Of a stretch of 64,000 nt of DNA, positions 15,882-27,589 are shown in pieces (position 1 is the first letter of the stretch; each line of letters opens with the position of its first letter). The DNA lies in NCBI RefSeq assembly GCF_000025625.1, contig NC_013922.1, positions 1,798,001 to 1,862,000 of the forward strand, read 5' to 3'. The DNA comes from Natrialba magadii ATCC 43099 (GTDB lineage: Archaea; Halobacteriota; Halobacteria; Halobacteriales; Natrialbaceae). A program made the position numbers and the translations under genes. The notes under the pieces were generated by a model, which ran no database searches, was not told the origin of the DNA, and worked only from the letters and a program-made list of their open reading frames with translations.

Positions 15882-17054
15882 CTACCACCAGCGGTTCTCG
15901 ACGAGCCGGTCGACCGCCTCGCGAATCGTCTCCTCGTTGCGCGAGAAGGTGAACCGAACCCAGTCCGAGTCGGCGTCGGGGTCCGTGTAGAAGCTACTGC
16001 CCGGAACGGCGGCGACGCCGGCCTCGCGGATCAGCCGGTAGCAGAACTCGATGTCGTCCTCGTCGGTCGGGTACCGCGTCAGAATGTAGTACGCGCCGTC
16101 GGGTTTGACCGGGTCGAGGCCCGCTTCCTGCAGGCCGTCATAGAGGATGTCGCGTCGCTCTTCGTAGGAGTCCGAGAGCTCCTGGTAGTACGAGTCGGGT
16201 AACTCGAGCGCTTCGACGCCGGCCTTCTGGAACGGTGTCGGCGCACAGATACTCGTGTAGTCGTGGATCTTCCGGAGTTCCTTCGAGAGGTACTCGGGCG
16301 CGAGACAGAAGCCGACGCGCCAGCCGGTGACGCTGAACGTCTTCGACATGCCCGTACAGACGATCGTTCGGTCGGCGAGGTCGCCGACCTCGACCGGACT
16401 GATGTAGTCGTCGGTGTAGACGATGTGCTCGTAGATCTCGTCGGTGAGAACGATCAGGTCGTGCTCGAAGACGAGTTCCTCGATGCGCTCGAGTTCCTCG
16501 CGCGTGAACACCTTCCCTGTCGGATTCATCGGGGTGTTGAGCACGATGATCCGGGCGTTCTCGGCCGCTGCTTCGAGTGCCTCGAAGTCGATGCCGAGGC
16601 CGTCGGTAATGTCGATAGGGACCGCGGTCGCACCCGCGAACTGGCTCGCGGGGATGTAGCTCTCGTAGACGGGTTCGAAGTAGATGACTTCGTCACCGGG
16701 GCCGGCAAGCGAGAGCATCGTCGACATGATGGCCTCGCTGGTGCCGCTGGTGATCGTGACCTCGGTTTCAGGGTCGTACTCGACGCCCTTCCACTCGGCG
16801 TAGCGCTCGGCGACAGCGTCACGCAGTTCCGGAAGCCCCCAGGTGATCGTGTACTGGCTGTCGGTCTCGATCGCCTCCTGGGCGGCGGTCTTGATCTCGG
16901 GTGGCGTCTCGTCCTCGTCGGGAATCCCCTGCGAGAGGTTGATCGCGCCGCGGTCGATTGCCTCGCGAGTCATCTCGCGGATGACCGACTCGGCGACGCC
17001 CGAGGTTCGGGAACTGCCGATTGCACCGTCGTCGAAATCAGGTGTCCGTGTCAT
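15882..17054 (-). CDS. Class I/II pyridoxal-phosphate aminotransferase
   Basis: A 390-residue aspartate-aminotransferase-type enzyme. Asn177 (NTPMNPTGK), Asp205, Tyr208 (LTDEIYEH) and Schiff-base Lys238 (GMSKTFSVTGWRVG) are all present. It starts 4 bases after the stop of the ureohydrolase gene, so the two form an operon. That places it in nitrogen metabolism linked to arginine or polyamine derivatives. The amino donor and acceptor cannot be read from sequence; aspartate, aromatic or kynurenine-type activity are all possible. Confidence 0.88.
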   Translation of the reverse strand: MTRTPDFDDGAIGSSRTSGVAESVIREMTREAIDRGAINLSQGIPDEDETPPEIKTAAQEAIETDSQYTITWGLPELRDAVAERYAEWKGVEYDPETEVTITSGTSEAIMSTMLSLAGPGDEVIYFEPVYESYIPASQFAGATAVPIDITDGLGIDFEALEAAAENARIIVLNTPMNPTGKVFTREELERIEELVFEHDLIVLTDEIYEHIVYTDDYISPVEVGDLADRTIVCTGMSKTFSVTGWRVGFCLAPEYLSKELRKIHDYTSICAPTPFQKAGVEALELPDSYYQELSDSYEERRDILYDGLQEAGLDPVKPDGAYYILTRYPTDEDDIEFCYRLIREAGVAAVPGSSFYTDPDADSDWVRFTFSRNEETIREAVDRLVENRWW

Positions 17055-17058
17055 TGTC

Positions 17059-18063
17059 TTATTCAGCGAACTTGCGCTCGAGTAGCGTTACGAGCAGGTA
17101 CGCGGCGAGTCGCTGGGTGCCTTCGTCGGAGTCGTACCGGGGTGCGACCTCCATCATGTCGACCGCGCCGACGTCGTCGGTCTCACCGAGTACTTCCATC
17201 GTTTTGAGTGCCTGGTGTGGCGTCAGCCCGCCTGGCACAGGAGTGCCGGTTCCCGGCGCAACACTCGGATCGACGGCATCGATATCGAAGGAGACGTAGA
17301 CTGCGTCGGTTCCCTCGGCCGCGGCGGCGACCGCGTCGGCCACGGCTGACGTGATGCCTTGGTCTTCGACATCGCGCATCGTGTAGAGGTTGAGTCCGGT
17401 CTCCTCGGCGAACTCGAAGAATTCAGGAGATTCGTAGCCGCGGATGCCGACCTGGCTGACGTTCTCGTAATCGGTGTACTCGGAGTTCGCGATCAGTGAC
17501 GTACTCGAGCCGTGGAAGTCCGTGCCGAAGACTGGACTCTCGGAGGTGGTGTCGGTGTGGGCGTCGATCTGGACGAAGCCGACGGTGTCGTGTCCAGCCC
17601 CCTCCGCGAAGCCTCGGAGGGCTGGGAACGTACAGTAGTGGTCGCCGCCGAGCATGACCGGAAAGGTCTGCGATGCGACGGTCGCCATGTGCGCGGTGAT
17701 ACTTTCAGCAGTCGTCTCGCTGTCCATCGGGAAGATCGGCGCATCGCCACAGTCAGCGACGGTGAGATCGTCGAAGTTCACCTGCTTTCCCGTCTGCATG
17801 TTCGTCAGTCCGCCCTTGTAGTCAGAGAGATACGCCCACCAACCGCTCGCGCGGCGGATCGCCTGGGGGCCGTAGCGTGCACCCGGTCGGTTCGAAACCG
17901 CACCGTCGTAGGGGACGCCAAACGTTGCCGCGTCGACGTCGGAGACAGCACCGACATCCCGCATCTCCCCCTTCAAAAAGGTCTTTGCACCGGCGTACGC
18001 GAGTTCCACGTTCGCCCCCTCGACTGACTCTCGGAACGCAGCTGCAGGGTGCTGATCGCTCAT
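17059..18063 (-). CDS. Ureohydrolase: agmatinase/arginase family
   Basis: A 334-residue manganese hydrolase that releases urea from a guanidino compound, most likely agmatine. Metal-binding motifs are GGDHY (His142), DAHTD (Asp167, His169, Asp171) and SFDIDAVDPS. The family members agmatinase, guanidinobutyrase and guanidine hydrolase cannot be separated by eye. The start at 18063 is preferred to 18093 on family length. First gene of an operon with the class I/II aminotransferase. An NrpR-like dyad lies at the promoter (18181-18194). Confidence 0.88.
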   Translation of the reverse strand: MSDQHPAAAFRESVEGANVELAYAGAKTFLKGEMRDVGAVSDVDAATFGVPYDGAVSNRPGARYGPQAIRRASGWWAYLSDYKGGLTNMQTGKQVNFDDLTVADCGDAPIFPMDSETTAESITAHMATVASQTFPVMLGGDHYCTFPALRGFAEGAGHDTVGFVQIDAHTDTTSESPVFGTDFHGSSTSLIANSEYTDYENVSQVGIRGYESPEFFEFAEETGLNLYTMRDVEDQGITSAVADAVAAAAEGTDAVYVSFDIDAVDPSVAPGTGTPVPGGLTPHQALKTMEVLGETDDVGAVDMMEVAPRYDSDEGTQRLAAYLLVTLLERKFAE

Positions 18064-18180
18064 CAGGTACTCACCTCGCCTTGCTGACTGCAAGCTAGCG
18101 CGGTCGATTGCGAAGCGTCCCCTGTCACTGTTCCGACTGCTCGCACTTGCGAGAGATCGAGTGTCATTCTAATACATCCC

Positions 18181-18194
18181 GGCAACTAGTTGCC
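18181..18194. promoter_or_regulatory. GGCA-N6-TGCC dyad, candidate NrpR operator
   Basis: GGCAACTAGTTGCC is a perfect 14-base palindrome. If TTATTAG (18218-18224, minus strand) is the TATA box of the ureohydrolase operon, the dyad covers about +1 to +14. If TGTATTAGAATG (about 18167-18178) is used instead, it sits on the BRE. Either position would let a bound repressor block initiation. The divergent regulator gene starts at 18392. Confidence 0.55.
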
Positions 18195-18391: not shown

Positions 18392-19516
18392 ATGGCACCG
18401 GAGCTCGATAGACGGACGTACGACCTCCTTCGACTCGTCGACCGCCACAGCCCGATCGGCAGCATCCAACTCGTCGAACTCATGCAGCTCCACGGCTACG
18501 ACATCAAAGACCGAACAATCCGGCTCACACTGTCCGAACTCGACGAACTCGGGCTCACGGCGAAAGTCCCCGGGCAGGGTCGCCGTCTGACACAGCGCGG
18601 CCGCGACGAACTCGAGCAGGGCGACGTCAGCAGCCGCCTCGAACAGATCCGCGCCCGCATCGCCGCCCTCACCAGCCGCGTCAGCTACGACCCGCTCGAG
18701 GACACTGGCGCGCTCGTTACCTCTGCCGCCTACCTCGACGAGGACGCCGTCGACGAGGCACTCGACCTCGTCGCCTCACTCGAGTCCCTCCCACTCGGCC
18801 CGATCCCGATTGCACTCGAGGACAGCGCCGAGAGCGAGCCCGGCGACGTTCGTCTGCTCGTCCCCTCGAGCATTACCCTCGACGGCGTTTTGCTGGCCCA
18901 CGGCGTCAACGCCGATCTTGCGACGGCGGGGTTACTCGAGTACGAGCCGGTAGCGGTGTCGGAGCGTTTGGGTGGGGATAGCGCTGCTGCTGGTGAGGGT
19001 GACGCTATTGGAGATGGTGCTGGCGAGAGCGAAAGGGCGAGTGCAAACAAAAACGAGGACCCCCGCCTCGACATCCAGAGCGGCGGCCGAATCGTCCGCT
19101 ACGTGGACGTCATCAACGGCGAGGGGTCGTCGATCGACGTCATTTCGCTGTTGATCGAGTCGGGGCGTACCGACGTTCGGAGCGTTCTCGAGGGAGAGGG
19201 GTCCGGTCTGCTGGTCGGCGACGGTCGACAGTTCCCGATTAACCGGTACGAGGAGGCACGTGACCTCGCTGTCGCGAGCCGGGACGCAATCGGCGGCGTG
19301 CTCGACTTTCAGCGGCCTCGCGAGCAGGATAAGCTTCCGAACGGCAGTTCCGCATGGGCCTTTGGCTCGTTGACCTACGTCGGTGTCGGTGAACTGCTGC
19401 TCTCAGCGCTGAGTGAGTACGACGTCACAACCGAGTGGGATACGCTGTACGGCACGGCCGAACGGAGCATGTTCGAGTCTGTCGAGACAGTGGTTCCAGC
19501 ACCGCTCGACGATTGA
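18392..19516 (+). CDS. NrpR-type transcriptional regulator 1
   Basis: A 374-residue protein. Residues 1-70 form a winged helix (RRTYDLLRLVDRHSPIGS ... RTIRLTLSELDELGL), followed by an NrpR regulatory (DUF128) domain. Conserved stretches include SSITLDGVLLAHGVN, RYVDVINGEGSSIDVIS and SAWAFGSLTYVGVGELL. In methanogens NrpR represses nitrogen genes and is released by 2-oxoglutarate. It is divergent from the ureohydrolase operon and paralogous to the regulator at 25118-26116. A Gly/Glu/Ala-rich loop of about 30 residues (around 195-225) is extra. Confidence 0.85.
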   Translation: MAPELDRRTYDLLRLVDRHSPIGSIQLVELMQLHGYDIKDRTIRLTLSELDELGLTAKVPGQGRRLTQRGRDELEQGDVSSRLEQIRARIAALTSRVSYDPLEDTGALVTSAAYLDEDAVDEALDLVASLESLPLGPIPIALEDSAESEPGDVRLLVPSSITLDGVLLAHGVNADLATAGLLEYEPVAVSERLGGDSAAAGEGDAIGDGAGESERASANKNEDPRLDIQSGGRIVRYVDVINGEGSSIDVISLLIESGRTDVRSVLEGEGSGLLVGDGRQFPINRYEEARDLAVASRDAIGGVLDFQRPREQDKLPNGSSAWAFGSLTYVGVGELLLSALSEYDVTTEWDTLYGTAERSMFESVETVVPAPLDD

Positions 19517-19631
19517 GACGGCGCTGTTTTTTCGCGACCAGCCGGTTCAGCGCTGCTCGAATCCGTTCACAGTCCTGCCTCTGGCTGTGCGTGATTACAC
19601 TCACATACTGGAGACCCGGGAGTCAGCACTC

Positions 19632-19691
19632 GAGACCCGGTACTCGGTACTTGAGACCCGGTACTCGGTACTTGAGACTCGGTACTCGAGT
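19632..19691. repeat. 21-base tandem repeat, 2.9 copies
   Basis: The unit GAGACCCGGTACTCGGTACT plus T repeats at 19632 and 19653; a third, diverged copy runs from 19674 to 19691. It lies between two convergent genes, regulator 1 and the carbon-nitrogen hydrolase. Inner TACTCGGTA motifs are partly self-complementary. Confidence 0.85.
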
Positions 19692-19758: not shown

Positions 19759-20679
19759 TTAGCAATCGTAGTGCTCGGGACGACGCGATGCGAGTGCGTC
19801 GTCGTACGGTGTGAGCTCCTTGTTGCGCGCTCGAGTGAGATCACACGCCGTCGTGAGCGCGTGCTCGCCGTCGACTGGTGCCGGGCCGGCGAGCGGGAGC
19901 CCGTTCGGGTCGAGGATAACGCTCTGGCCTTCGAACGTGACGCCGCGTTCTGTGCCTGCACGGTCTGCACAGGCCACGAAGACGCGGTTCGCGTTCGCGT
20001 GGGCGAGCGCCTGATGTGCGCCAATTGTCCAGCCACCGGGTCGGGTTCCGTCTGCGGGACCGGGTACCCAGTTGGTCGGGACGGCGACGAGGTCGACACC
20101 CGCTTTCGCCTGTGTCACCGTCAGTTCAGGAAACCAGAGATCATTGCAGATCTGGACGCCGAGTCGGCCAAACGGCGTGCCAACGACCGGTAGCTCGTCT
20201 CCGGCAGTGAACCAGCGATGTTCCTCGTTCCAGAGGTGGAGCTTTCGGTAGACGGCCTCGACGCCGTTCGGCGAGACGACGAGGGCGCTGTTGTAGTATC
20301 GACTGTTTGCGTCGGTTGTGTCTGTGTCTACGTCTGCGGCTTCAGGAAAGCCACCGACGATCCATGTGTCCGTCTCAGCCGCAACGTCAGCCCACGCGTC
20401 GGCGGTTGCGCCATCACGCGGTTCGGCCATCGTAGCGAGTTCGGATTCTGATTCGAAGACGTAGCCCGAGGTTGCGAGTTCGGGAAGGACGAGCAGATCG
20501 GCGTCCGCGTGCTCACGGACGAGTTCGACTGTGTGCTCGCGGTTGCGCTCGATTTCGCCGAACGCGGGTGTCGTCTGTGCGACGGCGATCCGCGCGTCGG
20601 TGGCGGCCGCCGGTGCGTCCGCGGCCGCCTCAGGCCGGATACTCGAGTCCGAATCCGAACCCGAACTCGCATCCGTCAT
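19759..20679 (-). CDS. Carbon-nitrogen hydrolase (nitrilase superfamily)
   Basis: A 306-residue amidase-type enzyme with the catalytic triad Glu67 (LPELATSGY), Lys146 (YRKLHLWNE) and Cys178 (GVQICNDLWFPE). The first 28 residues are a low-complexity acidic extension. Relatives include N-carbamoylputrescine amidase, omega-amidase and aliphatic amidases. Being last in the transporter operon (its start overlaps the permease stop), it probably hydrolyses the imported compound or its breakdown product, releasing ammonia. The exact substrate is inferred only. Confidence 0.85.
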   Translation of the reverse strand: MTDASSGSDSDSSIRPEAAADAPAAATDARIAVAQTTPAFGEIERNREHTVELVREHADADLLVLPELATSGYVFESESELATMAEPRDGATADAWADVAAETDTWIVGGFPEAADVDTDTTDANSRYYNSALVVSPNGVEAVYRKLHLWNEEHRWFTAGDELPVVGTPFGRLGVQICNDLWFPELTVTQAKAGVDLVAVPTNWVPGPADGTRPGGWTIGAHQALAHANANRVFVACADRAGTERGVTFEGQSVILDPNGLPLAGPAPVDGEHALTTACDLTRARNKELTPYDDALASRRPEHYDC

Positions 20680-22688
20680 TACTCCCAGATCCCTCCGGAG
20701 AATCGGTCAATCGCCGTCATCACGACAACAGTGAGGGCGATGAAGACTACACTGGCGGCCGCGATAGTCGGCGAGTAGCCGTACCGAAGCGAGTTGAAGA
20801 TCTCGATTGGAATGGTGTTGACGAGGAACAGCGACAGCAGCCACGCGATGATGTACTCGTTCAACGAGAGGATGAACGCGAACAGCGCACCCGAGATCAC
20901 GTTCGCCCGGATCAGCGGGTACGTGATGGTCCGTAGCGTTCGCAGCGACGACGCGCCGAGGTTCATCGCGGCCTCCTCGTAGGTCCGGTCGATCTCGTCT
21001 AACCCCTGTGAGATCAGGATGAACGGGAACGGCGCGTAGAAGATCCCGTGTGCGACGATGATACTCGTCCGCGAGCCGGCGATGCCGAGTTCGAGGAAGA
21101 ACACCAGGAACGCGACCCCGATGATCACCGGCGGCACGAGGATCGGTAGCACGCCGAACGTTCCGTAGATGGAGCTCCACTTGTAGTCGAATCGGTCGAG
21201 AGCGAACGCGAGTCCGCCACCGATCGTCGTACTCAGAAGCGCTGCGGCCCCTGCGATGGCGAAGCTGTTGACCAAGGCCACCATCCACGATTCACTCGTG
21301 AAGAACTCGACGTACCACTGCAAGGAGAACCCACCCGGTGGGAACGTCAGGAACTGTTCAGGAGTGAACGAAACGGCGATGATGATCGCGAGCGGGACGG
21401 CGATAAACGCCATCGCAGCTGCGACGTACACACGGAACGTTACCCAGATCACCGACTCGCGGGTTTTCGCGTCGATGCGGGTGACGGCAGCGTCGATCAC
21501 TGCGCCAAGCCGAGCGGCGGCGGCAGTGAGTCCGATCGCGGACGCGGCGTTCCCAAAGCCGCCGCGAACCTTCGCGAGCGGGCTGGTTCCCGTCGAGCCG
21601 GTCTGCTGAGAGCCGCCGTCGGTCGCGACCTCTTCGCTCCCACCGAGGCTTCCCGCGGTGACGTTCGTCAGGCGGATGAGCGCCCAGAGGAACACGATCA
21701 CGACGAGGATCAGGCCGATACTCATCGCGGCGGCGAACGGGTAGTTACTCTCGCTCATGATCTGCTGTTCGATCAGCACCGGCAGCGTCCGTTCGGCGGA
21801 GCTACCGAGCAGTCGTGGGAGCACGTACGAACCCAGTGCGAGGATGAAGACGAGCGCCATCCCGCTCGTGATCCCGTTCTTCGAGAGGGGGAGCGTCACG
21901 CGACGGAACGTCTTCGCTGAGCCCGCACCGAGGTTCTTCGACGCCTCGAGTAGTTCGCCGTCGATGTTCCGGATGCTGCTGTAGAGCGTGAGGATCATGA
22001 ACGGCAGGAAGACGTAGACCATGCCGACGACCAGTCCCCAGTAGCCCGGGTAGAACGACTGTGGCTCGGAGAGGATCCCGGTTGCGACACCGATCGAACT
22101 CAGGACACCGCCGGAGGCCAGAATAACCTGCCAGGCGTACGCGCGGATGACGTACGTCACCCACAGCGACGAGATGATCGTAATGAGCAGCAGGCTTCGC
22201 AGCCACGGTCGATCCATTCGCGCGAGATAGTACGCGATCGGATAGCCAAGCAGCAGCGAGAAGATGGCTGTCACGAGTGCCAGTTCGATCGTCAGCCACG
22301 TCTGGCTGAGGTAGAGCCCGGGCTCGATGAACGGCCAGGACGACGTGAAGTCGGCACTGACGAAGCGGAAGTAGTTCTCGAACGTGAAGCCGAATTCGTA
22401 CTGTCCGCCGGGGATGTTCACCCAGAAGCTGAAGACGAACAGCAGACACAGCGGGATGAAGAAGATCGCGACGAGCCAAAACATCGGATACGACAGCGCG
22501 TACCACTTTGCTCTGGCTTTCAATCCTGCACGCCCGGAGTCGCCTCCGCTTTCGGCGTCGCTACTGGTCACTGTTCCGCCGTCTGGCGCGAGTTCGGGGC
22601 TGGTGCCAGCGGTAGCGGTAGCGTCAGTGTCAGCGCCAGTGTCGGTATCGGTATCGGTATCGGTATCGGTATCGGTATCGGAACCCAT
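20679..22688 (-). CDS. Fused PotB-PotC ABC transporter permease
   Basis: A 669-residue membrane protein carrying both permease halves that are normally separate proteins. The first half ends its EAA loop with LLEASKNLGAGSAKTFRRVT, the second with YEEAAMNLGASSLRTLRTIT. Each half has about six helices, joined by a linker (Gly/Ser/Thr-rich, about residues 345-400). The N-terminus is a cytoplasmic acidic tail with an Asp-Thr dipeptide repeat encoded by six CGGTAT hexamers (22643-22680). It starts directly after the ATPase gene and overlaps the hydrolase gene start. Confidence 0.88.
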   Translation of the reverse strand: MGSDTDTDTDTDTDTDTGADTDATATAGTSPELAPDGGTVTSSDAESGGDSGRAGLKARAKWYALSYPMFWLVAIFFIPLCLLFVFSFWVNIPGGQYEFGFTFENYFRFVSADFTSSWPFIEPGLYLSQTWLTIELALVTAIFSLLLGYPIAYYLARMDRPWLRSLLLITIISSLWVTYVIRAYAWQVILASGGVLSSIGVATGILSEPQSFYPGYWGLVVGMVYVFLPFMILTLYSSIRNIDGELLEASKNLGAGSAKTFRRVTLPLSKNGITSGMALVFILALGSYVLPRLLGSSAERTLPVLIEQQIMSESNYPFAAAMSIGLILVVIVFLWALIRLTNVTAGSLGGSEEVATDGGSQQTGSTGTSPLAKVRGGFGNAASAIGLTAAAARLGAVIDAAVTRIDAKTRESVIWVTFRVYVAAAMAFIAVPLAIIIAVSFTPEQFLTFPPGGFSLQWYVEFFTSESWMVALVNSFAIAGAAALLSTTIGGGLAFALDRFDYKWSSIYGTFGVLPILVPPVIIGVAFLVFFLELGIAGSRTSIIVAHGIFYAPFPFILISQGLDEIDRTYEEAAMNLGASSLRTLRTITYPLIRANVISGALFAFILSLNEYIIAWLLSLFLVNTIPIEIFNSLRYGYSPTIAAASVVFIALTVVVMTAIDRFSGGIWE

Positions 22689-23801
22689 CTATGCCTCCAC
22701 GAGTCGGCAGTCGTCGGCCGCGACGGAAACCGCCACTCGGTCTCCGGGGCCTCGTTTGTCCATCCCGCTTCGCCGAACAACGGTGATTTCGCGACCGCTG
22801 TCGGTTTCGAGATGGAATTCGACACTACTGCCGAGATGTCGTTTGAAGGTTATTTCGCCCTCAAAGACGGTCGTTCCGCCGGCGTTCGTGCCACCGTCTG
22901 CGCTGGCCACACCGGCGTTGCTGGCGGCACTGTCCTCGAACCGGAACCGCTCCGGACGGATGACAACCGAGGTATCGTCGCCAGCCGAGACGCCGTTCTG
23001 TGCCGCCGCCTGCAAGGAGACGTCGCCACAGTCGACCAGCGCGTAGCCGTTCTCGACCGCCGAGACGGTACCGTCGAAGATGTTCGCCGTCCCGAGGAAG
23101 TCCGCAACGAAGCGGGAATCAGGGTCGTTGTACACCTCTTCCGGTGGGCCAACCTGTTCGAACTGACCGTCGTTCATCACGGCCAGCCGGTCCGACATCG
23201 TCAGCGCCTCCTCCTGATTGTGCGTGACGAAGACGGTTGTGATGCCAATCTCCTGTTGAATGCGGCGCAGTTCGACCTGCATCTGCTCGCGCAGTTGCTT
23301 GTCGAGGCTCGCGAGCGGTTCGTCGAGCAACAGCGCCTTCGGTTGCGGTGCGAGCGCACGTGCGAGCGCGATTCGCTGCTGTTGCCCGCCGGAAAGCTGG
23401 TCCGGCATCCGGTCGCCGACGCCCGGCAATTCGACGAGGTCGAGCATTTCCTCGACGCGGGCGTCGATCTCCTCGGTGGTGTAGTCACCGTCAGCTTCCA
23501 TCCCGTAGGCGATATTCTCGTGAATGGTCATGTGCGGGAACAGCGCGAAGTCCTGGAAGACCATCCCGGTGTCACGCTCGTACGGGGGTGCGTCGGTGAC
23601 CTCGTTCCCGTCGATGTGGACACTCCCGTCAGTTGGCGTCTCGAACCCGGCGATCGTTCGGAGGGTCGTCGTCTTGCCACAGCCAGACGGGCCGACGAGT
23701 GTCACGAACTCGCCGCTCTCGATGTCGATATCGACACCTTTGACTGCGAGAACGCCGCCCGGATACCGCTTCTGTACTCCTGCAAGTGAAATTCCACTCA
23801 T
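22689..23801 (-). CDS. potA: Polyamine-type ABC transporter ATPase
   Basis: A 370-residue ATPase. Walker A GPSGCGKT is at residues 37-44, Q-loop in VFQDFALFPHMT, signature LSGGQQQR, Walker B LLLDEPLASLD and switch His in VTHNQEEA. The C-terminal 110 residues form the TOBE domain seen in PotA/FbpC-type proteins. It energises the fused permease for import of an amine-type solute. The ATG at 23801 is chosen over a TTG at 23807. It lies 26 bases after the binding-protein gene. Confidence 0.9.
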   Translation of the reverse strand: MSGISLAGVQKRYPGGVLAVKGVDIDIESGEFVTLVGPSGCGKTTTLRTIAGFETPTDGSVHIDGNEVTDAPPYERDTGMVFQDFALFPHMTIHENIAYGMEADGDYTTEEIDARVEEMLDLVELPGVGDRMPDQLSGGQQQRIALARALAPQPKALLLDEPLASLDKQLREQMQVELRRIQQEIGITTVFVTHNQEEALTMSDRLAVMNDGQFEQVGPPEEVYNDPDSRFVADFLGTANIFDGTVSAVENGYALVDCGDVSLQAAAQNGVSAGDDTSVVIRPERFRFEDSAASNAGVASADGGTNAGGTTVFEGEITFKRHLGSSVEFHLETDSGREITVVRRSGMDKRGPGDRVAVSVAADDCRLVEA

Positions 23802-23827
23802 AAACAATTAGATCTGTTTCGATTGGC

Positions 23828-24931
23828 TTAGCCGATGATGAACTGTTCCCAGCGCTCACTAACCCAGTCCTCTTCCTCGACGTAGAGTTCGTACTTGGGC
23901 GTGATCGCTTCGTCCGGTCCTGGTCCGGCGACCTCCTCGTAGAAGTCGTCGTCGATCTCGGAGTACTCACGTTCGACCGTCGGACTCGTGTACAGTCCCT
24001 GTGCGAGTTCGTCCTGCACCGAGGGCTGACTCGCGTAGTCGATGAACTCGCGCGCCTCCTCCTTGAGGTCGGACGTCTCGAGTGTGACCCAGAGCCCGGA
24101 GTCGAGAATCGATCCTTCCTGGACGAAGTTCGACTGAACTGGCGCGCCGTCGTCCTGCATGACTCGCGTAATGTCACTGTAGAGCATGCCGGCCGGCACT
24201 TCGCCGTCTCGGAGACGCTGCTGGAACTCCGCTTCGTTCTCGTACCAGAAGTTCGCCTGATCCGTGACGCCCTCGAGTTCCTCGAACACTTCCTCGACGC
24301 CGTCGCGGTCGTCGAGAATGTCCTGGCCGTCGAAGTGCACTTCTGCGGTGACCTCGAGCAGGAACGAGTTCGACGCGTAGCCGAGCAGGCCGAGCGTATC
24401 TTCGTACTCGTCGTCCCAGAGCGCCTCCCAGGAATCGATTGGCTCCTCGATGACGTCCGTATTCTGGACGAGGTTGATGTACCACGACAGCGCACCGATA
24501 CTCGAGATGCCGCCGTCGGCCTCACCGACGAGATCGTCGCTGATGTACTCGAGATTCTCGAACTCGTCGTCGTCCCAGATGTGCCACAGATCGGAGTTTA
24601 GTCCCTGAAGGACACCGGTCTGTGCCATGATCGCGACGTCGACTGGCGCATCGCCGGCACCAACGGCGTTCTCGTACTGCGTGAGCGCTTCCTCGGATGT
24701 TGGTTGTGCCTCTGACTCGACGCTGATGTCGGTTTCCTCTTCGAACGGAGCAAAGAGGTCCTCGTCCATAACGTCCTGGAACACACCGCCGTAGACCGCA
24801 ACGGTCAGCGTGTCGTCCCCACCGTCGAGCATTCCTGTACAGCCTGCGAGCCCCCCGAGGGCGGCGACACTCCCCGCTGCCGCCGTCGATCGAAGGAACG
24901 TCCGTCTCCCGTGCGTGTTTTTTGCTGGCAT
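23828..24931 (-). CDS. potD: PotD-like substrate-binding lipoprotein
   Basis: A 367-residue extracellular binding protein with twin-arginine signal (HGRRTFLRSTAAAG) and lipobox LAGC at residue 31. The mature domain begins LTVAVYGGVFQDVMDEDLF, typical of spermidine/putrescine and related binding proteins. The substrate is not certain; polyamines are most likely from the family, and iron or 2-aminoethylphosphonate relatives exist. It is the first gene of a four-gene operon. An NrpR-like dyad overlaps its start codon. Confidence 0.85.
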   Translation of the reverse strand: MPAKNTHGRRTFLRSTAAAGSVAALGGLAGCTGMLDGGDDTLTVAVYGGVFQDVMDEDLFAPFEEETDISVESEAQPTSEEALTQYENAVGAGDAPVDVAIMAQTGVLQGLNSDLWHIWDDDEFENLEYISDDLVGEADGGISSIGALSWYINLVQNTDVIEEPIDSWEALWDDEYEDTLGLLGYASNSFLLEVTAEVHFDGQDILDDRDGVEEVFEELEGVTDQANFWYENEAEFQQRLRDGEVPAGMLYSDITRVMQDDGAPVQSNFVQEGSILDSGLWVTLETSDLKEEAREFIDYASQPSVQDELAQGLYTSPTVEREYSEIDDDFYEEVAGPGPDEAITPKYELYVEEEDWVSERWEQFIIG

Positions 24932-24941
24932 ACAATTGCCA
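24926..24941. promoter_or_regulatory. TGGCA-N6-TGCCA dyad, candidate NrpR operator
   Basis: TGGCATACAATTGCCA overlaps the first codon of the binding-protein gene. With CTTTATGTAG (minus strand, 24967-24976) as TATA box, it covers about +5 to +20. It shares the GGCA-N6-TGCC core with the site at 18181-18194. Confidence 0.55.
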
Positions 24942-25117: not shown

Positions 25118-26116
25118 CTATTGTAAGTCTGCTCGATCGTGAACCCGTGCCAGCGTTTCCCACTCCGTCGCGATTCCCTCCTCGACGCAACGGGCGATGA
25201 GGCACTCAGAGAGACCGACACACGTCAGCGAGGCGAACGCCCAGCCCGGTTCATCCCACGGGAACGGGCCGGGTTCGCGCGGCCGCCGCACGTCGATCAC
25301 ACCGCCGAGTTGGCGGCGAGTGGCGACTGCGAGCTCGTGTGCGCGGTCGTACTTTGCGAGCGGAAACTCACGATTGTCGGCGACCAGAAGCCCTGGCTCG
25401 CCCGCAAGCGCCGAGCCGACCGTCGTACGACGTGCCTCGATCAGCAGCGATACCATGTCGACAGTCGCTCGCTCGTCTCCGATCACGTCGGTGAACCGCC
25501 TGATCGCACCGCCGTGGGCGGCCGGCTCCGGATCGTCATAGGGGACGCTCTCCGGATCCGCGTGATACTCGACGACACCGGTCGTCTCGAGATCCGTGTC
25601 GATCCCCTCGTTGAGCAACACGCCATCGATCGTTACACTCGAGGGCGCGGCGATCTCGAGGAACTCCTCGCCGTCGCGCTCGACCGACTCGAGTGCTGTC
25701 GCGGCTGGTCCCAGCGGTGAGTCGTCGATCGCTGCGATAATCGACTCGACGTCTGACCGGTTCGTCGCCGGTACGGTAACGGTACCGACGACGACGTCTC
25801 CGTCGTCGGTCTCTGGGTTGTACGTCACGTGACTTGTCAGGTCTGCGAGTCGCTCGCGGACCTGTTCGACACGGCCACTGACGCCGCCGCGATCGAGCTC
25901 TGCGCGGCCGGCAACTGTCAGCCGCCTTCCTTTTCCACCTGCTTTCTCAGTTAATCCGCTCTCATCGAGGTCGGCGAGCGTGAGCCGGACCGTTCGCTCC
26001 GTGATCGAATAGCCGCGCTCGCGGAGATGGTCGGTCAGGTGAACGCTCCCGATCGGTTCGTGAGCCGCGAGCAAACGGAGGATGTCGTACGTTCGTCGAT
26101 CCGGATCGCTCGTCAT
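25118..26116 (-). CDS. NrpR-type transcriptional regulator 2
   Basis: A 332-residue paralog of the regulator at 18392-19516. The winged helix spans residues 1-68 (RRTYDILRLLAAHEPIGS, RTVRLTLADLDESGL). The NrpR regulatory domain has matching stretches SSVTIDGVLLNEGID, RRFTDVIGDERATVDMVS and GWAFASLTCVGLSECL. It follows the class III aminotransferase gene by 10 bases and is probably co-transcribed with it. A TATA-like box (CATTTATCC) about 27 bases upstream could also give its own leaderless transcript. The ATG at 26116 begins the winged helix; the frame is open upstream. Confidence 0.85.
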   Translation of the reverse strand: MTSDPDRRTYDILRLLAAHEPIGSVHLTDHLRERGYSITERTVRLTLADLDESGLTEKAGGKGRRLTVAGRAELDRGGVSGRVEQVRERLADLTSHVTYNPETDDGDVVVGTVTVPATNRSDVESIIAAIDDSPLGPAATALESVERDGEEFLEIAAPSSVTIDGVLLNEGIDTDLETTGVVEYHADPESVPYDDPEPAAHGGAIRRFTDVIGDERATVDMVSLLIEARRTTVGSALAGEPGLLVADNREFPLAKYDRAHELAVATRRQLGGVIDVRRPREPGPFPWDEPGWAFASLTCVGLSECLIARCVEEGIATEWETLARVHDRADLQ

Positions 26117-26126
26117 CGTTCGATAC

Positions 26127-27527
26127 CTACTGTGCGGCGGATAAATGCGTGGCGAGATCCGCGAAGGAGTCGATGTGTGCATCGATCTCGTCGGTCGTGT
26201 GCTGGACGCTGATGGTCCACTGCTGAGAGGCGTCGTGGGGGTGTGGGATGACACCGCGGTTGAGCATCCCGAACCAGTAGGCTTCGTGGAGTTCCTCGTC
26301 GACGTGTTCCCAGTCGCGGAACGTTCGCACGCGCTCGTCCGTGAAGTACACCATTCCCTGTGATCCGACAGTGACGACGTAGCCATCGATATCGGCGTCG
26401 GCCATCACATCGCGATAGCCGTCCGCCAGGCGTTCGGAGAGCTCGGTGACGTGGTCGTACGCGTCGTCCGTGAGTATTTCCCGCAGCGTGACACCGACCG
26501 CGCGCAGCGAGAGCGGGTTCCCGTTGTAGGTGCCGTAGTGTGCCGCACCGGTCGCGACGCCCTTCTCGAGATCAGCCGCGACCAGTTCCATGAGTTCTCG
26601 CTTGCCACCGAACGCGCCGACGGGATAGCCGCCGCCGATCGCCTTCGCGAGCGCGACCAGATCCGGCTGGACGCCGTAGTACTCGGCCCCGCCGCCGGGT
26701 GCGATCTTCGCGCCGGTCTTGACTTCGTCGAAAATCAGGACGGCACCGAACTCGTCGGCCAGTTCGCGCAGCCGATGGAGGAAACCATCTTCCGGTTCGA
26801 CGACGCCGAGATTGAAGCAGGCCGGTTCGACGAGAATGCCCGCAACCTCGTCCTCGTGGGCGCGAAGCAGTCGCTCGACGCTCGCTGCGTCGTTGTACTG
26901 TGCCAGGAGGATGTTCTCTGGGACAGACTCCGGGATTCCACGGGACTCCCTGATCGGCGTTGGATCGTCGGCCGGTCCGGCCTCGTCGAGTGGCGGCATC
27001 TTGCTCACGAGGGCTGGATCGTGTGCGCCGTGGTACGCGCCTTCCATCCGGATGATCTTCTCACGGCCGGTCGCTGCCCGCGCGAGGCGCATCGAGTGCA
27101 TCACCGATTCGGTGCCGCTGTTCGTGAACCGGACCTGTTCGATCGCCTCCCAGCGGTCGAGTAGCGGCTGCGCTGCGAACTCGATGAGGTCACTCGGTCG
27201 CGTGTACAGCGTCCCGTCGTCGATCTGCTCTTTCGTCGCTTCGGACAGCGTCGGATGCGTGTGCCCGACGAGCTGGGTTCCGTTGTTCAGTGCGAAATCC
27301 AGGTACTCGTTCCCGTCCACGTCGTGAATCGTCGTCCCCGTCGCCCGCTCGGCGTGTACGGGATACGGATCGTACGCACGGTACGTGCTGCAAACGCCTG
27401 CGGGGACCAGTTCCCCCAGATCCTCGGCAAGCGCCGCTGAACCTGGTGTTTGCTCCTGGTACTGTTCGTGCTCGGTTGCGAGTAACTCCGCCGCCGACGT
27501 GTCGGATGGTCGTTCTGGCTCGGTCAT
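26127..27527 (-). CDS. Class III aminotransferase (GSA-aminotransferase-like)
   Basis: A 466-residue PLP enzyme of the class III family, which includes ornithine, GABA, putrescine and glutamate-1-semialdehyde aminotransferases. Key residues: GTES near residue 138, Asp267 in IFDEVKTG, Schiff-base Lys295 in ALAKAIGGGYPVG, and THYGT-like AAHYGTYNGNP. The substrate is open; an omega-amine product of the locus fits the context. First gene of an operon with regulator 2. A GGAA-N6-TTCC dyad sits in its leader. The start at 27527 is set by family length. Confidence 0.85.
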   Translation of the reverse strand: MTEPERPSDTSAAELLATEHEQYQEQTPGSAALAEDLGELVPAGVCSTYRAYDPYPVHAERATGTTIHDVDGNEYLDFALNNGTQLVGHTHPTLSEATKEQIDDGTLYTRPSDLIEFAAQPLLDRWEAIEQVRFTNSGTESVMHSMRLARAATGREKIIRMEGAYHGAHDPALVSKMPPLDEAGPADDPTPIRESRGIPESVPENILLAQYNDAASVERLLRAHEDEVAGILVEPACFNLGVVEPEDGFLHRLRELADEFGAVLIFDEVKTGAKIAPGGGAEYYGVQPDLVALAKAIGGGYPVGAFGGKRELMELVAADLEKGVATGAAHYGTYNGNPLSLRAVGVTLREILTDDAYDHVTELSERLADGYRDVMADADIDGYVVTVGSQGMVYFTDERVRTFRDWEHVDEELHEAYWFGMLNRGVIPHPHDASQQWTISVQHTTDEIDAHIDSFADLATHLSAAQ

Positions 27528-27533
27528 CAAATC

Positions 27534-27551
27534 CCGGAAGTACACTTCCGG
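27534..27551. promoter_or_regulatory. GGAA-N6-TTCC dyad, candidate NrpR operator
   Basis: CCGGAAGTACACTTCCGG, 8-base arms around a 2-base centre, contains exactly GGAA-N6-TTCC, the operator reported for NrpR in Methanococcus. With the minus-strand TATATTT at 27577-27583 as TATA box, it covers about +3 to +20, just before the start codon of the aminotransferase. Confidence 0.65.
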
Positions 27552-27589
27552 TTCTAGGGTCAACGATTCGCGTCTCAAATATAGCTTTC

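What the first reader, a model, noticed from the sequence alone, without database searches (positions are those of the whole stretch)
27534..27551. Canonical GGAA-N6-TTCC site before the class III aminotransferase
CCGGAAGTACACTTCCGG contains exactly the operator core described for methanococcal NrpR. It lies between the predicted TATA box (27577-27583) and the start codon of an operon that encodes an NrpR-like protein. This suggests autoregulation by regulator 2.
Basis: partly seen in the sequence, partly recalled or inferred. Interest (0 to 1): 0.7.

Follow-up and report, generated by a model that had tools for sequence, protein, structure and literature searches.

The report
Self-control DNA switch of haloarchaeal NrpR
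An 18-base mirror-image DNA site just before an aminotransferase gene of a salt-loving archaeon is found, with its core unchanged, before the same gene in all 18 genomes found to carry it, and it is most likely the landing site through which a regulator encoded in the same operon controls its own production.

Summary
In detail: CCGGAAGTACACTTCCGG is at 27534-27551, between a TATA box (27577-27583) and the ATG (27527) of a class III aminotransferase (AT3), whose operon includes an NrpR-like gene (REG2). The bare GGAA-N6-TTCC core alone is weak evidence: 79 copies in the genome, and 13 of 15 sampled lie in coding DNA. The longer form CCGGAA-N6-TTCCGG occurs once in the whole genome, here. In 18 of 18 AT3-REG2 operons found (three archaeal families), CGGAA-N6-TTCCG lies just before AT3; the arms are invariant while spacer and surrounding promoter drift. 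All 18 regulators form one clade (100/100). Genomes with the paralogue REG1 but no REG2 lack the site. In the same locus, REG1-type sites, GGTGGCA-N6-TGCCACC-like, precede the ureohydrolase and transporter genes. Best reading: an autoregulatory operator of REG2, a single-NRD NrpR-family repressor local to a probable polyamine/guanidino-compound catabolic locus, with an outer operator sequence distinct from its paralogue's. Binding, repression and ligand are inferred, not shown. An RNA hairpin is disfavoured. The known kind is the NrpR operator; new are the paralogue-specific operator and the non-nitrogen gene setting.

The parts
27534..27551 (.). Palindromic operator CCGGAA-GTACAC-TTCCGG (proposed REG2 site)
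   Evidence: unique in the genome; conserved 18/18
27577..27583 (-). TATA box (TATATTT on the minus strand) of the AT3-REG2 promoter
   Evidence: TATA-like block starting 32-36 nt before GGAA in 14 of the 15 family-f1 orthologues (the pattern missed L055, which reads tagatataag there) and 23-25 nt in the three others
26127..27527 (-). AT3, class III aminotransferase (PF00202), first gene of the operon
25118..26116 (-). REG2, NrpR-like regulator: winged HTH (PF08461) + one NRD (PF01995); recognition helix modelled at residues 40-52
19759..24931 (-). ABC transporter (SBP, ATPase, fused permease; polyamine/2-aminoethylphosphonate class) and CN-hydrolase (nitrilase type)
24927..24940 (.). GGCA-N6-TGCC site overlapping the SBP start codon (proposed REG1-type operator)
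   Evidence: present at the SBP gene in all orthologous transporter loci read
18181..18194 (.). GGCAACTAGTTGCC, conserved palindrome between the ureohydrolase gene and REG1 (proposed REG1-type operator)
18392..19516 (+). REG1, paralogous NrpR-like regulator (42% identical to REG2)
17059..18063 (-). Ureohydrolase (agmatinase/guanidinase superfamily)
15882..17054 (-). AT1, class I aminotransferase

Best explanation
27534-27551 is the operator of REG2, an NrpR-family winged-helix regulator, in the promoter of REG2's own operon (AT3-REG2). A REG2 dimer most likely binds the two inverted half-sites (AACCGGAA) and, since the site covers the region where transcription is expected to start downstream of the TATA box, blocks initiation, so that AT3 and REG2 are repressed until an effector bound by the NRD domain releases it. 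The circuit is local: one site per genome. A paralogue, REG1, most likely controls the divergent ureohydrolase gene and the transporter through a different operator, GGTGG(C/A)A-N6-T(G/T)CCACC. Shown: position, uniqueness, conservation, co-occurrence with the REG2 clade, domain architecture and predicted fold. Inferred: binding, repression, effector, and that the transcription start lies in the site.
For: Arms CGGAA/TTCCG invariant in 18/18 orthologous promoters from three families while spacer and promoter outside the TATA region vary; CCGGAAN6TTCCGG once in the own genome and at the AT3 promoter in 14 of 15 REG2 genomes of the family, with off-locus copies at the background rate (0.40 against 0.42 per genome); AT3 orthologues (>=72% identity) and REG2 occur in the same 15 genomes of the family; REG2 proteins form one 100/100 clade; G064, G071 and G039 have REG1 but no REG2/AT3 in the locus and show only GGCA-type sites at its promoters; REG2 has PF08461 + PF01995 and its model matches MJ0159 NrpR (3NEK, E 6e-14, TM 0.77-0.81 by target); known NrpR operators are GGAAN6TTCC (PMC2723118); REG2 differs from REG1/REG3 at the start of the recognition helix (T39-E40 against mostly K39-D/G/S40).
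Against: No binding, expression or transcription-start data. REG1 or another factor could bind the site. 18 genomes are not 18 independent events (seven are one genus). In G102 and in G215 and G262 outermost base pairs of the palindrome are lost. Activation rather than repression is not excluded.
Confidence: 0.8

Rival explanations
1. The palindrome is a leader-RNA hairpin just before the start codon that controls translation or mRNA stability of AT3.
For: The leader of the window folds well (-11.5 kcal/mol, z -3.0) and the site lies 6 nt before the ATG.
Against: No pair changes on both sides in 18 sequences: the inner arms are invariant, and the three departures (L061, L114, L115) change without compensation and weaken the hairpin. 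Extra copies stand outside this leader, e.g. GCGGAAGTGTACTTCCGC 45 nt before a divergent deacetylase-family gene in L059. No Rfam match.
Confidence: 0.06
2. The site is bound by REG1, by a REG1/REG2 heterodimer, or by a non-NrpR regulator.
For: REG1 is encoded in nearly every such locus, and relatives of REG1 have hybrid sites in which GGAA and GGCA half-sites mix, so A/C at the third base is not strictly discriminating.
Against: REG1-only genomes have no CCGGAA-type site at the promoters of the locus; G222 carries REG2, AT3 and the site without a REG1 beside them (it does hold another NrpR-like protein elsewhere); outer bases differ consistently (ACC against GGT).
Confidence: 0.1
3. Chance palindrome or shared ancestry without function.
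For: The bare core is common in this genome and mostly coding.
Against: 18/18 conservation across three families with poorly conserved flanks and spacer; expected 0.02 bare-core occurrences in 18 such promoters.
Confidence: 0.02

Closest known systems
NrpR / operator GGAAN6TTCC of Methanococcus maripaludis (nif, glnA, glnK-amtB)
   Same: Core half-sites and spacing identical (PMC2723118); site downstream of a TATA box; regulator has winged HTH plus NRD, NRD fold as in MJ0159.
   Different: REG2 has one NRD (332 aa; the methanococcal protein has two, from memory); the extended half-site is AACCGGAA; one local site instead of a nitrogen regulon; the operon encodes an aminotransferase in a probable polyamine/guanidino catabolic locus. 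2-oxoglutarate response is untested.
NrpRI/NrpRII of Methanosarcina mazei
   Same: Single-NRD regulator with HTH resembles NrpRI (from memory).
   Different: No NRD-only partner was seen: the own genome showed only REG1 and REG2, both with HTH.
REG1/REG3, the other haloarchaeal NrpR-like regulators beside ureohydrolase genes (this work)
   Same: Same domain layout, same 6-bp spacer, same locus type.
   Different: Operator GGTGG(C/A)A-N6-T(G/T)CCACC; K (or Q/E/T) at 39 and D/G/S at 40 where all REG2 proteins have T-E.

Membership tests
NrpR family (regulator protein) | N-terminal winged HTH of the NrpR type (PF08461) | tested here: met
   REG2 residues 12-74, 49.7 bits against cut-off 21.4
NrpR family (regulator protein) | NRD regulatory domain (PF01995) | tested here: met
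   77.5 bits against cut-off 25; model matches 3NEK at E 6e-14
NrpR family (regulator protein) | Release from DNA by 2-oxoglutarate; control by nitrogen supply | not testable with these tools
   described for methanogens (PMC11957540); no ligand data here
NrpR operator | GGAA-N6-TTCC near the transcription start, downstream of TATA | tested here: met
   18/18 promoters
NrpR operator | Bound by the NrpR-type protein in vitro or in vivo | not testable with these tools
   co-occurrence only
NrpR nitrogen regulon | Sites before nitrogen-assimilation genes (nif, glnA, glnK-amtB) | tested here: inconclusive
   the extended site occurs once in the genome, before AT3; the promoters of nitrogen genes were not inspected and bare-core copies were classified only for 15 of 79
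RNA leader element | Compensatory base changes in the stem | tested here: not met
   none in 18 sequences; no Rfam family

The most novel reading that the evidence does not exclude
Two NrpR paralogues in one haloarchaeal locus have split operator specificity after duplication (ACCGGAA against GGTGGCA half-sites, with changes at residues 39-40 at the start of the recognition helix) and have been moved from nitrogen control to sensing a polyamine or guanidino compound, which gives two separately addressable operators of one regulator family in one pathway.
Probability: 0.45. Interest if true: 0.62.

Novelty: new variant of a known kind. Interest (0 to 1): 0.48.

Why it matters
Haloarchaea are described as lacking a conserved master NrpR-type regulator (PMC6801745). 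Here NrpR-family proteins are tied, by sequence evidence alone, to specific operators in haloarchaea and to a probable amine-catabolism locus rather than to nitrogen fixation. The pair gives a natural test of how NrpR proteins read DNA, and a predicted operator for each that can be tested directly by gel shift.

Tried and rejected
Bare-core genome scan as evidence: rejected, 79 copies, mostly coding in the sample. A second, intragenic core at 26780-26793 (codons of EPEDGFL) is kept in most orthologues, which suggested an auxiliary operator; but its GAA codon is no more uniform than several other glutamate columns (4 of 20 columns reach 87% GAA or more) and its downstream arm lacks the outer GG, so coding constraint explains it (three rows of that codon alignment were in a wrong frame, which does not change the reading). 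Out-of-sample orthologues: wider draws of the family and order and a GTDB scan returned only genomes already used. Rfam: nothing. The NrpR structure paper was not held.

Full report
WHAT IS THERE. On the minus strand AT3 (class III aminotransferase, 26127-27527) is followed after 10 nt by REG2 (25118-26116), then by a substrate-binding protein, ATPase, fused permease and CN-hydrolase (24931-19759). REG1 (18392-19516, plus strand), a 42%-identical paralogue, is divergent from a ureohydrolase gene and a class I aminotransferase gene. REG1 and REG2 are the only NrpR-like proteins found in the genome.

THE SITE. CCGGAAGTACACTTCCGG is exactly at 27534-27551, between TATATTT (27583-27577) and the ATG at 27527. 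The bare core is common: 79 genomic copies, and 13 of 15 sampled copies lie in coding-like ORFs. CCGGAA-N6-TTCCGG is unique in the genome.

CONSERVATION. AT3 orthologues beside REG2 were found in 15 of 125 genomes of the family and in three more from two other families. Every one has CGGAA-N6-TTCCG close before the AT3 start (GGAA 19-30 nt before the predicted start in the 15 of the family; the other three). The ten core positions CGGAA/TTCCG are invariant and the flanking A, C and G nearly so; most of the six spacer positions are poorly conserved (the first is always a purine); the sequence between TATA and site is weakly conserved at most. The TATA-like block starts 32-36 nt upstream of GGAA in the family and 23-25 nt in the three others, so the site sits at or just past the expected start of transcription.

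WHICH REGULATOR. In the 15 REG2 genomes of the family the long site occurs 20 times, 14 of them at AT3 (G102 has lost one outer base), leaving 0.40 per genome elsewhere; 31 genomes without REG2 have 0.42. REG2 therefore seems to have a single local target. The 18 REG2 proteins form one clade (100/100). Three genomes with REG1 and the transporter but no REG2 or AT3 there (L072-L074) have only GGCA-N6-TGCC sites at the promoters of the locus. Those sites stand before the ureohydrolase and over the start codon of the binding protein in the REG2 genomes too. In other haloarchaea most NrpR-like genes next to a ureohydrolase gene come with GGTGG(C/A)A-N6-T(G/T)CCACC, including mixed half-sites; a few loci showed none that I could recognise (e.g. 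L124). REG2 proteins all have T39-E40 at the start of the modelled recognition helix (40-52), REG1 has K39-D/G40 and REG3 mostly K39-G/D/S40. That these residues set the preference is a guess from the pattern.

FAMILY. REG2 passes the Pfam cut-offs for the NrpR HTH and NRD domains; its model (mean pLDDT 88) matches the solved NRD protein of M. jannaschii (3NEK). It belongs to the NrpR family by architecture and fold. A nitrogen role is not supported by the genes it sits with; 2-oxoglutarate sensing is untested.

MECHANISM. By analogy with methanogen NrpR (PMC2723118; PMC11957540) and from the site position, a REG2 dimer would block initiation at its own promoter until an effector releases it. 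The neighbouring genes (polyamine-class transporter, ureohydrolase, aminotransferases, CN-hydrolase, and in ten relatives a histone-deacetylase-family amidohydrolase) suggest catabolism of polyamines or guanidino compounds; in L059 and L054 a second REG2-type site lies between AT3 and that divergent deacetylase gene. All of this paragraph is inference.

ALTERNATIVES. An RNA hairpin is possible thermodynamically but has no compensatory changes and is weakened in three genomes. Binding by REG1 is disfavoured by the REG1-only genomes. Chance is very unlikely.

Noticed in passing
17059-18063: The ureohydrolase's two best solved relatives are the nickel guanidinases of Synechocystis (7ESR/7OI1) and Nitrospira inopinata (9FEK), ahead of agmatinases; it may be an archaeal guanidinase or a guanidino-acid hydrolase.
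   Followed up: partly
L059:3168-4274, L054:11834-12931, L051:11630-12727 and other relatives: A histone-deacetylase-family amidohydrolase gene is adjacent to this locus in many relatives, divergent from AT3 in five; in L059 and L054 an extra REG2-type site lies between the two genes.
   Followed up: partly
L117, L118, L062, L064, L131 (intergenic): Mixed operators with one GGCA and one GGAA half-site (e.g. GGTGGCAATACCTTTCCACC) near NrpR-like genes.
   Followed up: partly
about 18064-18165 (-): A short ORF (34 codons) between the GGCA site and the ureohydrolase gene; in L057 the same place holds an ORF of about 85 codons, so this may be a shortened remnant.
   Followed up: no
26780-26793: Second GGAA-N6-TTCC inside AT3, kept in most orthologues; explained by coding constraint.
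   Followed up: yes
L055 about 500 nt, L056 139 nt and L115 106 nt upstream of the main site: Additional CGGAA-N6-TTCCG-like copies whose target gene is unclear.
   Followed up: no
19620-19690: Short tandem repeats of a GAGACCCGGTACTCGGTACTT-like unit after the CN-hydrolase gene.
   Followed up: no
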